Shown piece by piece: positions 1 to 35,366 of a DNA stretch of 35,366 nucleotides. The position numbers and the translations under genes are program-made. Source of the DNA: Microcaldota archaeon (lineage in GTDB: Archaea; Micrarchaeota; Micrarchaeia; Norongarragalinales; UBA8480); the NCBI GenBank assembly GCA_021812145.1, contig JAKAOM010000005.1:1-35366 (forward strand), in the 5' to 3' direction. The notes below the pieces were generated by a model. It saw nothing but the letters and a program-made list of their open reading frames with translations. It made no database searches and had not been told where the DNA came from. Position 1 is the stretch's first letter, and every line of letters starts with the position of its first letter.

Positions 1-1
1 T

Positions 2-286
2 AACGATTTGAGCAAAATTGATGGTAAAAGCGTTGATGTTGTTTTTATGGCAAACTCATTCCACGATTTTGAAGACAAAAAAACCGCGGTTACAGAAATC
101 AAAAGGATTTTGAAGGATGACGGCAGGGTTTTTGTAATCGACTGGGAAAAGAAAAATACCAATTTCGGCCCTCCGCAAGAATTAAGACTTTCAAAAAAAG
201 ATTATCTTAAATACTTTAATTGGATGAAACTAGAAAAGGAATTCAACGGTGGAAAGGACCACTATGGAATAATTCTTAAAAAATAG
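2..286 (+). CDS. Class I SAM-dependent methyltransferase, C-terminal fragment (5' end outside window)
   Basis: Frame is open to the window edge (NDLSKIDGKSVDVVFMANSFHDFEDKKTAVTEIKRILKDDGRVFVIDW), typical of methyltransferase motifs post-II/III. Confidence 0.75.
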   Translation, partial: NDLSKIDGKSVDVVFMANSFHDFEDKKTAVTEIKRILKDDGRVFVIDWEKKNTNFGPPQELRLSKKDYLKYFNWMKLEKEFNGGKDHYGIILKK

Positions 287-354
287 CAAAATTTAAAATT
301 TCAAAATGTTTGATAAAAATATTATTAAACGTTTAACCCTATTCATAAACGCTT

Positions 355-2715
355 ATGGCTGATTCAAGCGCAAAATCAAAAAGCATAACCGACGAGTCAA
401 CTGTGTTTGACGAAAAAGGCTTGTCAGAAGAAGATGCTGGAATTAAGCTGAAAAAATACGGATTCAATGAAATTAAGACAGAAAAACCAAACTACCTTCT
501 TTTGTTTGCCAAAAAATTCACAGGCCCTGTAGAGCTCCTGCTTTGGGCAGTTATGATACTATCTTTCTTTTTAGGCAACATGAGGGACTTTTACATAATA
601 CTCGCGCTTTTGATATTCAACGCAATCATAAGCTTTTTCGAGGAGTATCGAGCGGATAAGTCAATGGAAGCTCTTAAAGAAAGGCTTGCCCCAACCGCAA
701 GGGTTCTTAGATCAGGCGAGTGGAAGGAGATCCCTGCAAGAATGCTTGTTCCAGGAGACGTTATAAGGGTTAGAGCAGGAGACATAATTCCAGCCGACGC
801 TAAGATATTCACAAACGGAGAGGTTGAAGCCGACGATTCTGTCATTACTGGCGAATCTCTTCCGAAGACAAAAGGCAATGGCGATGTTTTGTACAACGGC
901 TCGATTGCAAGAAAAGGAGAGGCAAGCTGCGTTGTTGTTGGAACAGGGTACGAAACGCTTTACGGCAAAACTGCAAAGCTTGTGGAAAGAGCAAGGCCAA
1001 GATCACACCTGCAGGACGCTATAATGAATATCATAAAATATCTTGTACTAGCCGACTCAGTAATAGTAGTTTTGATGTTTGTTTACGGCGAATTAGTGGT
1101 TCACGCAGAAATCATGACACTTGTTGAATTTCTTCTTGTCTTGCTTATAGCGTCAATCCCAGTAGCGCTGTCTGCGGCTTTCACAGTAACCATGGCGTTG
1201 GGAAGCGAAAGACTTGCAAAAAAATCCATATTGGTTACAAAGCTTGAATCAATAGAAGAAGTCTCCACAATGAACGTTTTATGCGCAGACAAGACTGGAA
1301 CTCTAACCGAAAACAAAATTTCAGTAAAAGAAGTTAAATCATTTGGATTAGATGAAGAAAACGTCATAAAGTACGCTGCTGAAGCTTCAAGAAGGGAGGA
1401 CAACGATCCCATAGACAACGCGGTTTTGGACAGGGCAAAAAACCTCACATTAGAAAACCAGTTGAGCTTCTCGCCGTTCGACCCTTCCACGAAAAGAACT
1501 GAAAGCGTTTTAAAAGGATATTCAGTTTCAAAAGGAGCTCCGCACGTCATTTTCAAATTATGCGATTTAAGCGAAGCTGATGGAAAAAAAGCAGAGGAGG
1601 CAGTCCTTGAATTTGCAAAAAAAGGCTTCAGAACAATAGCGGTGGCAGTTAAGAAGAACACTAACTGGAAACTTGCAGGATTGATAGCCCTGTACGACTC
1701 TCCAAGATCGGACTCAAAAGAATTGGTTAAGGATTTGAAAGAGATGGGGGTAGAAGTCAAAATGATAACAGGAGACAACATAGCAGTTGCAAGCGAAATA
1801 GCCGAAGAGCTTGAAATAGGAGGCAACATAGTGGATATTACAAGCGAGAACGAAAACGAAAATTTAAGCAATTTGATTGAAAGCGCAAACGGATTCGCCG
1901 ACGTATACCCTGAAAACAAATACACTATAGTAAAGGCATTGCAAAACAAAAATTATATAGTGGGAATGACAGGAGACGGAGTCAACGACTCTCCCGCCTT
2001 GAAGCAGGCGGAGGTGGGAATAGCGGTTGAAAACGCAACAGACGTGGCAAAGAGCGCTGCCGACATGATACTCACAAAAAGCGGAATAGATGTTATAATA
2101 GAAGCAGTAAAAGAAAGCAGGCGTATTTTCGAAAGAATGAAAATCTACACCATGATTAAGGTAATTAAAGTTTTTGAAATAGTAGGATTCGTGGCTTTGA
2201 TGTTCCTGCTTTTCCACGACTTCGCCATAACCCCATTCCTCCTTATTCTCTTAATGTTCACAAATGACATTGTAACCGTTTCTATTTCAACAGACAACGT
2301 AGAGTATTCTGAAAAGCCGGCAAAGTGGAACGTCAAGTCTATAATGAGCGCTTCGGCCATTTTCGGGGGGTTCCTCATAATTGAGGCGGTAATCGTTTGG
2401 TTATTGAATTCTATTTACCTAGGTTTGAGTGTTGCCGCTCTTCAGACAGTTGTCTTCCTGCTTTTCGACGTTGACGACAAACTCGTGCTGTTCAATATTA
2501 GAACACCTAAAGATTTCTGGAAAACCAAGCCAAGCAAATATATAGTAATTTCAAGCGTTATTGGGATAGTAGCGGGAGTTTTGATTTCATACTATGGGTT
2601 TTTGATAACAGCTATACCCCTATCCTCAATAATTCTAGTTTTCGCCATTTCAATCATATTCTTCTTATTAATGGACTACATTAAAAAACCGCTATTCAAA
2701 CGGTTTGGCGTTTAG
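355..2715 (+). CDS. P-type ATPase, plasma-membrane proton-efflux (type IIIA) family
   Basis: DKTGTLTENKIS phosphorylation motif, TGES loop, MTGDGVNDSPALKQAEVGIAV hinge, multiple TM helices, 786 aa. Confidence 0.93.
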   Translation: MADSSAKSKSITDESTVFDEKGLSEEDAGIKLKKYGFNEIKTEKPNYLLLFAKKFTGPVELLLWAVMILSFFLGNMRDFYIILALLIFNAIISFFEEYRADKSMEALKERLAPTARVLRSGEWKEIPARMLVPGDVIRVRAGDIIPADAKIFTNGEVEADDSVITGESLPKTKGNGDVLYNGSIARKGEASCVVVGTGYETLYGKTAKLVERARPRSHLQDAIMNIIKYLVLADSVIVVLMFVYGELVVHAEIMTLVEFLLVLLIASIPVALSAAFTVTMALGSERLAKKSILVTKLESIEEVSTMNVLCADKTGTLTENKISVKEVKSFGLDEENVIKYAAEASRREDNDPIDNAVLDRAKNLTLENQLSFSPFDPSTKRTESVLKGYSVSKGAPHVIFKLCDLSEADGKKAEEAVLEFAKKGFRTIAVAVKKNTNWKLAGLIALYDSPRSDSKELVKDLKEMGVEVKMITGDNIAVASEIAEELEIGGNIVDITSENENENLSNLIESANGFADVYPENKYTIVKALQNKNYIVGMTGDGVNDSPALKQAEVGIAVENATDVAKSAADMILTKSGIDVIIEAVKESRRIFERMKIYTMIKVIKVFEIVGFVALMFLLFHDFAITPFLLILLMFTNDIVTVSISTDNVEYSEKPAKWNVKSIMSASAIFGGFLIIEAVIVWLLNSIYLGLSVAALQTVVFLLFDVDDKLVLFNIRTPKDFWKTKPSKYIVISSVIGIVAGVLISYYGFLITAIPLSSIILVFAISIIFFLLMDYIKKPLFKRFGV

Positions 2716-32908: not shown

Positions 32909-33793
32909 CTATGTTTTGGGATTGCAAAGTACTTTAACCCCCTCTTTTTCTATCACAACGGTTGTTTCAGCCTGCGAAACCAACCCATTGTCAGAAAGCA
33001 TGGGATAGGAAGTTCCAGCGCCATTTTTTATTATCTCACCCAAAGCCAAATCTATTTGAAGGTCTGAATAAGGAAGCGTAAGCCACCTTTTCGCAAAAGG
33101 AAGCGTTTGGAAATCGTTAATTGCAAGACTAAGCACTTCCCTAGCTGTTTCTCCTCTAACCTTTCCTCCGAATAAAGAATATATCTGGCAGTAATTCTGC
33201 TCTGTAACCCTTCCCCGGCCCATTGTGGCAAACGGTTCCACCGCGAAAACCTGCCCTTCCTGCAGAACATTACCACTTGAAGGGGTATTTGGAAGATCAA
33301 CGCCAGCGTGAAGCAAATACCGTTCTATCAAATGGCCGTTTAGATTATCTATGACCTTAAAACCAGCCTTTTTGATTTCTTCCTCTATAGCGCCGCCAAC
33401 TACCCTGAAGCTTGCCCCGCTTTTCATCACGCTAAGAGCGCTTTCAAGAGCATTTTGAGACGCTTCTAGAAGCTTTCCGTTTTCTTCAGAAAAATCAAGG
33501 GTCAGCGAAGTATCGATTATAAAACCTTCAACCTGAACGCCAATATCTATCTTAAGTAGATCCTTGTCGCCAATTACACTTTCATCGTTTATTGAAGGAG
33601 TATAGTGGGCGGCCCTTTCGTTTGCGCTTAAATTGACTGGAAATGCAGGCCTACCCCCGTTTTCGGTTATAAAAGATTCTATTTTTTGAGCGATTGCAAG
33701 CATTTTTTCACCTGGCTTTGCAATGCTTCTGGCAAGGCTTCTTGCCTTTTCTGCTATAGCGCCTGCCTTAATGTAAAATTCAATTGATTCCAT
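32909..33793 (-). CDS. map: Methionine aminopeptidase, type II
   Basis: GGRPAFPVNLSANERAAHYTPSINDE, LLKIDIGVQVEGFIIDTSLTL, NLNGHLIERYLLHAG, VFAVEPFATMGRG. Confidence 0.95.
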   Translation of the reverse strand: MESIEFYIKAGAIAEKARSLARSIAKPGEKMLAIAQKIESFITENGGRPAFPVNLSANERAAHYTPSINDESVIGDKDLLKIDIGVQVEGFIIDTSLTLDFSEENGKLLEASQNALESALSVMKSGASFRVVGGAIEEEIKKAGFKVIDNLNGHLIERYLLHAGVDLPNTPSSGNVLQEGQVFAVEPFATMGRGRVTEQNYCQIYSLFGGKVRGETAREVLSLAINDFQTLPFAKRWLTLPYSDLQIDLALGEIIKNGAGTSYPMLSDNGLVSQAETTVVIEKEGVKVLCNPKT

Positions 33794-33833: not shown

Positions 33834-34538
33834 TTAAAGGGTTTCAGGGCTTTTCAACAACACTTTCTCAGCCAGTATTTTTTTAACTTCAAAAAGGTTT
33901 TTTGCCTTGAAATCAGCTCGAGTGCGATTGTTTTTTGAGTATTTTCCCTGAAGCACGCGTATTGTTTTAAAACCTAGCTTTTTCATAGGAAGCACGTCAA
34001 CATCCTCCCGGTCTCCTATCATGAAGCAATCTCTTCGTTCAAAACCAGTTTTTTCGTAGAAATTCAGAAATTTCTCCAACTGACTGCCGTCATGCTTGTC
34101 TTCAACCACGAAAACCTCGTCAAAAAAATCAGCTATCCCCAAAAGATTAAGCTTGTCCCACTGTTTTACAGGAACCCCTCCTGTGAGAAGAAATATCTTA
34201 ACCTGTTTTTCCTTTAAAAAAAGCAGAAGGTCAAAACAACCCGGGGAAATAAAATAAGAAAGAAGATTCTTTGCGGCGTGATGAGCTGAAACCCCCGCGC
34301 TTAGTATTTTATAATCGTTTTTATGCCCAAGCCTTTCCATCAGAATATTGTAGTGCCCTTCGAAATTTGAACCGAATTCCTTGTAGATTTGGTCAAGCAT
34401 TTTCCACTGCTTTACTGCCGGAGCATCCAATCCCCTAAGCTTCATCGCTTCTATAGCCTGTCTTCTTGCAAATAGGTTGAACCTTGTAGACAAATACAGA
34501 GTGTCGTCAAGATCGAAAACAACTGCTTTCAACTCCAA
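33834..34538 (-). CDS. HAD-superfamily hydrolase
   Basis: AVVFDLDDTLYLSTRFN, IFLLTGGVPVKQWDKL, CFMIGDREDVDVLPMKKLGFKTIRV. Confidence 0.88.
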   Translation of the reverse strand: MELKAVVFDLDDTLYLSTRFNLFARRQAIEAMKLRGLDAPAVKQWKMLDQIYKEFGSNFEGHYNILMERLGHKNDYKILSAGVSAHHAAKNLLSYFISPGCFDLLLFLKEKQVKIFLLTGGVPVKQWDKLNLLGIADFFDEVFVVEDKHDGSQLEKFLNFYEKTGFERRDCFMIGDREDVDVLPMKKLGFKTIRVLQGKYSKNNRTRADFKAKNLFEVKKILAEKVLLKSPETL

Positions 34539-35365
34539 TCACCGAAGTTTTTTTGCCTGGAGTCATTTAAAAGGTCTTCCTTTCGCACGCCAAGCTCGCC
34601 CAATATTTTCAAAACAGCCGGCAATAATTGGTTGTTTATGTAATAATCGGGATCATAGTCTTTAGCATATTCCGTAAACTCTGATTTTTCAGATATGCTC
34701 TCTCCCCTTTTTGAAGCATTTTTCCCCTTTGTTATAATATAGCCAACGCTTTGTCCAGCCTCGATTTTAACCCCCCTCTTTTCAGCTTTCAAGGCAGCGC
34801 TGACTTCAGGGCTTAGTATTTCATAGCTTTTCAGGCTTTTTGTTATGGTGGAGTGAATTTCAAGGTCCTGAATATCTGCCTTCCCTTCTTTAAGCATAGA
34901 AACCGACTTTCTAACCTCTGCAATCGCTTCCTGCAAATCCCCTTTTTTAAGAAGGGCTTCAAGCACTTTCCTCTGCGTTTCCCGGGCAATCCTGCTCCAA
35001 TCCCTTCTCACCAGTTCAAACCCTCTTATTTTTATGACTCCCTTCTTGTTTATCAAAGCGTATTTCTTCTTTGCCCCAGCGATTCCCTGCTTTTTTGACA
35101 CGAATATTCCCCGGTCATAGAAGTCTTCCAACTCCAGCTCCATTTTCTCGGGAAGGCTTTTATTAACCGTTTTTCTGAACTCCTCTACTCTCTCCTCATC
35201 TTCAGTCTTGAATTGGAGGAAGACTGAATCAGTGTTATGAAGTAGAACCCCCCCGCAGGCATCCACGAACATGTGAGATTTATCTACAGTTAAGTCGTAA
35301 ACATAGTCGTCATATTCTTCTTTTATTATTTTTGTTTTTATTCTATTATTAGTCTTTGTGGGCGT
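34529..35365 (-). CDS. polB: Family-B DNA polymerase, C-terminal part, interrupted by an intein (5' end beyond window)
   Basis: C-extein TDSVFLQF...KKKYALINKKGVIKIRGFELVRRDWSRIARETQRKVLEALL...; frame is open upstream of the called Met to the window edge. Confidence 0.9.
   Translation of the reverse strand, partial: TPTKTNNRIKTKIIKEEYDDYVYDLTVDKSHMFVDACGGVLLHNTDSVFLQFKTEDEERVEEFRKTVNKSLPEKMELELEDFYDRGIFVSKKQGIAGAKKKYALINKKGVIKIRGFELVRRDWSRIARETQRKVLEALLKKGDLQEAIAEVRKSVSMLKEGKADIQDLEIHSTITKSLKSYEILSPEVSAALKAEKRGVKIEAGQSVGYIITKGKNASKRGESISEKSEFTEYAKDYDPDYYINNQLLPAVLKILGELGVRKEDLLNDSRQKNFGDWS
35234..35365 (-). other. Intein C-terminal splicing region (partial; rest outside window)
   Basis: In-frame TPTKTNNRIKTKIIKEEYDDYVYDLTVDKSHMFVDACGGVLLHN followed by extein T-D-S: intein block F (VYDLTV..SHMFV) and block G (VLLHN|T). 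Confidence 0.88.
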
Positions 35366-35366
35366 T

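What the first reader, a model, noticed from the sequence alone, without database searches (positions are those of the whole stretch)
35234..35366. Intein C-terminus embedded in the DTDS catalytic motif of DNA polymerase B; the ORF start call is an artefact
Seen directly: the minus-strand frame is open beyond the called Met (35272) to the window edge and reads ...EEYDDYVYDLTVDKSHMFVDACGGVLLHN|TDSVFLQFK. This matches intein block F and block G (penultimate His, terminal Asn, +1 Thr). Established: archaeal PolB inteins are known at the YxD|TD(S/G) motif C site. Inference: the polymerase here is a composite extein-intein gene or a split intein, and the N-terminal splicing domain and any homing endonuclease lie outside the window.
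Basis: partly seen in the sequence, partly recalled or inferred. Interest (0 to 1): 0.68.

Follow-up and report, generated by a model that had tools for sequence, protein, structure and literature searches.

The report
Cut-off intein in archaeal DNA polymerase
The end of this contig holds the tail of an intein, a self-removing protein insert, in the catalytic motif of a Micrarchaeota-type DNA polymerase; it is a well-known kind of mobile insert at a well-known site, and it looks cut off only because the assembled contig stops there.

Summary
Confirmed. The minus-strand frame 34529-35365 is open past the called Met (35272) to the contig end; its first 44 residues are an intein C-terminus joined to a family B polymerase at HN|TDS. 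It is an ordinary pol-c intein. Thirteen relatives, mostly Micrarchaeota-type DPANN, carry the whole element in cis: 391-441 aa, YxD|Ser...His-Asn|TDS, usually with LAGLIDADG motifs. No split version was seen, no in-frame start lies upstream of 35272, and the missing part is not elsewhere in the 78%-complete MAG. The window is all of contig C1, so the truncation is technical. Unexpected: contig C6 of the same MAG holds the other half of the locus (conserved synteny) but with an intein-free motif, YIDTDS. C6 and C1 are 68% identical over the 97 bp next to the site, then identical for 77 bp until C6 ends in an Illumina adapter remnant. This may be an intein presence/absence polymorphism with donor flank carried along by homing, or a chimeric contig end; only reads would tell. 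New member of a known kind; low interest.

The parts
35234..35365 (-). C-terminal 44 residues of a pol-c intein (blocks F and G, ends His-Asn); the rest lies beyond the contig end
34529..35233 (-). C-extein of family B DNA polymerase, from +1 Thr of motif C (TDS) to the stop codon
   Evidence: DNA_pol_B profile 228-451; best PDB matches are archaeal family B polymerases
35270..35272 (-). ATG called as the ORF start; an internal Met of intein block F, not a start
35060..35136 (-). 77 bp identical to the terminal polB stretch of contig C6, just before the adapter remnant on C6
35137..35233 (-). 97 bp next to the intein in which C1 and C6 are only 68% identical (66/97)
33834..34538 (-). HAD-family hydrolase, downstream neighbour of polB (also next to polB in L063)
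32909..33793 (-). M24 metallopeptidase (methionine aminopeptidase type); on the C side of polB in many relatives

Best explanation
This is the truncated 3' part of a cis-spliced polB gene that carries a standard pol-c intein. The intein (expected about 420 aa, Ser1, probably with a LAGLIDADG homing endonuclease) sits between the Asp and the Thr of catalytic motif C (YxD|TDS). After translation Ser1 and the +1 Thr carry out the acyl shifts, the terminal Asn cyclises, and the ligated YxDTDS active site is restored. The contig stops inside the intein for technical reasons. Shown: the intein C-terminus, the polymerase C-extein, the junction residues, and complete cis homologues in relatives. Inferred: the missing N-part of this copy, its splicing, and whether its endonuclease is intact.
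For: Intein C-terminal and DNA_pol_B profiles abut exactly at the junction. Thirteen complete cis inteins at the same site in relatives, all beginning with Ser after YxD and ending HN|TD; the closest matches Intein_splicing and LAGLIDADG_3 and PI-PkoII 2cw7. The 44 residues align without gaps to most of them up to the contig edge. The window is a whole contig. No in-frame start upstream of 35272.
Against: The N-terminal splicing domain and endonuclease of this very copy were not seen; the only polB N-part in the MAG (C6) is intein-free. Splicing was not tested.
Confidence: 0.95

Rival explanations
1. Naturally split intein as in Nanoarchaeum equitans: the C-extein is a separate gene beginning with an IntC fragment and is trans-spliced to a separately encoded N-extein/IntN.
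For: The N. equitans PolB break point is this very position (PMC549080), and the host is also DPANN; the N-half is on another contig.
Against: No start codon before 35272 in frame; homology to cis inteins reaches the contig edge; all relatives with the intein are in cis; the N-part on C6 has no IntN and reads through TDS; no other contig matches the intein N-part.
Confidence: 0.03
2. For the C6/C1 mismatch: a true presence/absence polymorphism of the intein in one population, in which homing brought the intein with about 97 bp of donor C-extein (co-conversion).
For: C6 and C1 are the two sides of one locus by synteny and similar in composition. Divergence is confined to the 97 bp beside the site; beyond it 77/77 bases and 25/25 third positions agree, against 5-15 of 25 in the relatives listed. 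Homing by gene conversion is shown for the Haloferax polB intein (PMC3024317).
Against: C6 ends in an adapter remnant right after the 77 bp, so the identity cannot be followed further; four intein-plus/minus sister pairs show no consistent dip around the site.
Confidence: 0.35
3. For the C6/C1 mismatch: C6 and C1 (or just the end of C6) come from two related organisms binned together, and the 77 identical bases are a chimeric overlap made by the assembler.
For: C6 starts with CGATCT and ends with AGATCGGA; C7, C20, C23 and C3 also begin with adapter remnants, so contig ends here are partly artefacts. 77 is a common assembler k (from memory).
Against: Contamination estimate of only 0.26%, similar composition, and similar long branches in one clade for the C6 N-part and the C1 C-part.
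Confidence: 0.55

Closest known systems
pol-c inteins of family B DNA polymerase (position III: archaeal PolB, Mimivirus PolB, Haloferax volcanii PolB-c)
   Same: Same insertion point in motif C, +1 Thr, His-Asn C-terminus; homologues have Ser1 and mostly LAGLIDADG motifs
   Different: Host is a Micrarchaeota-type DPANN archaeon; this copy is truncated by the contig end
Nanoarchaeum equitans split PolB intein (NEQ068/NEQ528)
   Same: Same position in PolB; DPANN host
   Different: No start codon before the C-intein here; relatives are contiguous; no N-half with an N-intein was found
PI-PkoII intein of Thermococcus kodakarensis polymerase (PDB 2cw7)
   Same: Best PDB match of the closest complete homologue, in the splicing blocks and the endonuclease
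   Different: 537 aa against about 420 aa in the relatives; low overall identity

Membership tests
pol-c intein (cis) | Insertion between YxD and TD(S/G) of PolB motif C | tested here: met
   C side HN|TDS seen in the window; both sides seen in 13 relatives
pol-c intein (cis) | C-terminal blocks F and G with terminal Asn and +1 Cys/Ser/Thr | tested here: met
   TIGR01443 above cut-off; HN|T
pol-c intein (cis) | N-terminal block A nucleophile (Ser/Cys) and block B | not testable with these tools
   Beyond the contig end; present in the relatives
pol-c intein (cis) | LAGLIDADG homing endonuclease (optional) | not testable with these tools
   Beyond the contig end; LAGLIDADG_3 match and motifs in relatives
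pol-c intein (cis) | Single open frame through the intein into both exteins | tested here: inconclusive
   Open to the contig edge; complete in relatives
N. equitans-type split PolB intein | C-extein gene starts with its own start codon before IntC | tested here: not met
   No ATG/GTG/TTG in frame between 35272 and the contig end
N. equitans-type split PolB intein | Separate gene with N-extein followed by IntN | tested here: not met
   None in the 78%-complete MAG; the only N-part is intein-free

The most novel reading that the evidence does not exclude
A snapshot of intein homing within one uncultured DPANN population: intein-plus and intein-minus polB alleles coexist, with a short (about 97 bp) tract of donor C-extein carried along beside the intein.
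Probability: 0.3. Interest if true: 0.4.

Novelty: new member of a known kind. Interest (0 to 1): 0.2.

Why it matters
It corrects a gene call (a polymerase fragment begun at an internal Met) and shows that pol-c inteins are patchy among Micrarchaeota-type archaea (7 of 29 genomes held for this order). If both alleles are real in one population, the site would be a natural case for measuring homing and co-conversion in an uncultured ultrasmall archaeon.

Tried and rejected
Split intein: disfavoured by the missing start codon, the cis relatives and the absence of an N-half. Two polB paralogues in one genome: unlikely, since in five relatives the C6 neighbours and the C1 neighbours lie on the two sides of a single polB. 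Ordinary polymerase segment before TDS: rejected by the intein profiles and by intein-free YxDTDS homologues. Co-conversion test on four intein-plus/minus sister pairs: no consistent dip around the site. The only same-genus genome (G001, 61% complete) has no match to the locus. Viral contigs: no relative of the intein confirmed. An intein tree with the 44-residue tail has too little signal to place it. A literature search for inteins in Micrarchaeota found nothing on this site.

Full report
The observation. The minus-strand frame ending at 34529 is open to base 35365. The window is the whole of contig C1 of a 757,482-bp, 26-contig, 78%-complete genome bin, so the frame stops because the contig stops. 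It reads TPTKTNNRIKTKIIKEEYDDYVYDLTVDKSHMFVDACGGVLLHN|TDSVFLQFK. Residues 12-44 match the last 31 positions of Pfam Intein_splicing, residues 21-45 match NCBIfam intein_Cterm above its cut-off, and DNA_pol_B starts at residue 44. The codon called as start, ATG 35272, is an internal Met of block F; no other start codon occurs between it and the contig end.

What it is. Searching relatives with the 278-aa frame gave polB in 57 of 60 genomes. Most are single frames of about 800 aa that match only from the junction on. Genomes G009, G020, G015, G026, G047, G016 and G025 also match the intein tail, in single frames of 1171-1248 aa. With loci from genome contigs, thirteen complete inteins could be cut out: 391-441 aa, each beginning with Ser after YxD and ending HN before TD. 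The closest (G009, 66% identity over the 44 residues) matches Intein_splicing and LAGLIDADG_3; its best PDB match is PI-PkoII, 2cw7, E 9.7e-17. Most of the others show LAGLIDADG-type motifs by a simple pattern scan. This is the pol-c position described for archaeal PolB, Mimivirus and the N. equitans break point (PMC549080) and for Haloferax (PMC10643990).

Cis or split. The window tail aligns with the cis inteins right up to the contig edge. Searching the own genome with a complete pol-c intein found only the window tail and one weak match inside another intein. None of the relatives examined shows a split gene at this site. A split intein is therefore unlikely, though the bin is incomplete.

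The other half of the locus. Contig C6 of the same bin begins with a polB N-part (bases 1-1827, minus strand) that reads NVLYIDTDSLFLQF with no intein. In five relatives (G004, G002, G005, G016 and L045) C6 neighbour genes lie on the N side of a single polB and the M24 peptidase of C1 on the C side. C1 and C6 have similar tetranucleotide make-up, r 0.76-0.83, against 0.06-0.58 between C1 and other genera. In the polymerase tree both own parts fall in one clade with similarly long branches. So C6 and C1 look like the two sides of one locus in the same or closely related organisms, yet one end carries the intein and the other does not.

The overlap. From TDS onward, C1 and C6 agree in 66 of 97 bases and then in 77 of 77. 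In the second stretch all 25 full codons have identical third positions, whereas the relatives listed match the window at 5-15 of 25, so protein conservation does not explain it. C6 then ends in CGATCT (AGATCG in the gene's direction), and its other end is AGATCGGA; contigs C7, C20, C23 and C3 also begin with pieces of what I recognise as the Illumina adapter. Contig ends in this bin are therefore partly library artefacts. The pattern fits homing with a short co-converted flank, and also a chimeric contig end; four intein-plus/minus sister pairs were not informative. I leave this open, leaning slightly to the artefact.

Distribution. In the own order 7 of 29 genomes, the own one included, have a pol-c intein tail (E at most 8.3e-12). 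The three weaker matches (G002, G013, G027) lie at places other than the polB hit and look like other inteins. The other family members with polB (G002-G006) match only from the junction on. On the extein tree intein-bearing rows are scattered, including a close pair that differs in presence (L128 with, L052 without, branch lengths 0.073 and 0.058). This is the usual patchiness of mobile inteins.

Verdict. It is a new member of a known kind, with low surprise value.

Noticed in passing
G000 contig C6:1-1827 (L118) against window 35060-35233: Intein-free polB N-part on another contig of the same MAG; 68% identical to C1 over 97 bp beside the intein site, then 77/77 identical, then an adapter remnant.
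   Followed up: partly
Contig ends C6:1-6, C6:99263-99270, C7:1-6, C23:1-6, C20:1-9, C3:1-5 of G000: Pieces of the Illumina adapter (CGATCT, TTCCGATCT, GATCT, AGATCGGA) left at contig ends: untrimmed adapters in this assembly.
   Followed up: yes
L003:505-3597 (G000 C6 around 78378-79421): MCM helicase with a LAGLIDADG-bearing intein in the Walker A region (GDPG|C...HN|TAKS).
   Followed up: partly
L004:832-2865 (G000 C26 around 97917-98405) and L130:710-4498 (C26 around 44845-46350): Two type II/IV secretion ATPases (T2SSE) with inteins: one a mini-intein without an endonuclease match, the other with LAGLIDADG. With MCM and polB this makes four inteins in a small genome.
   Followed up: partly
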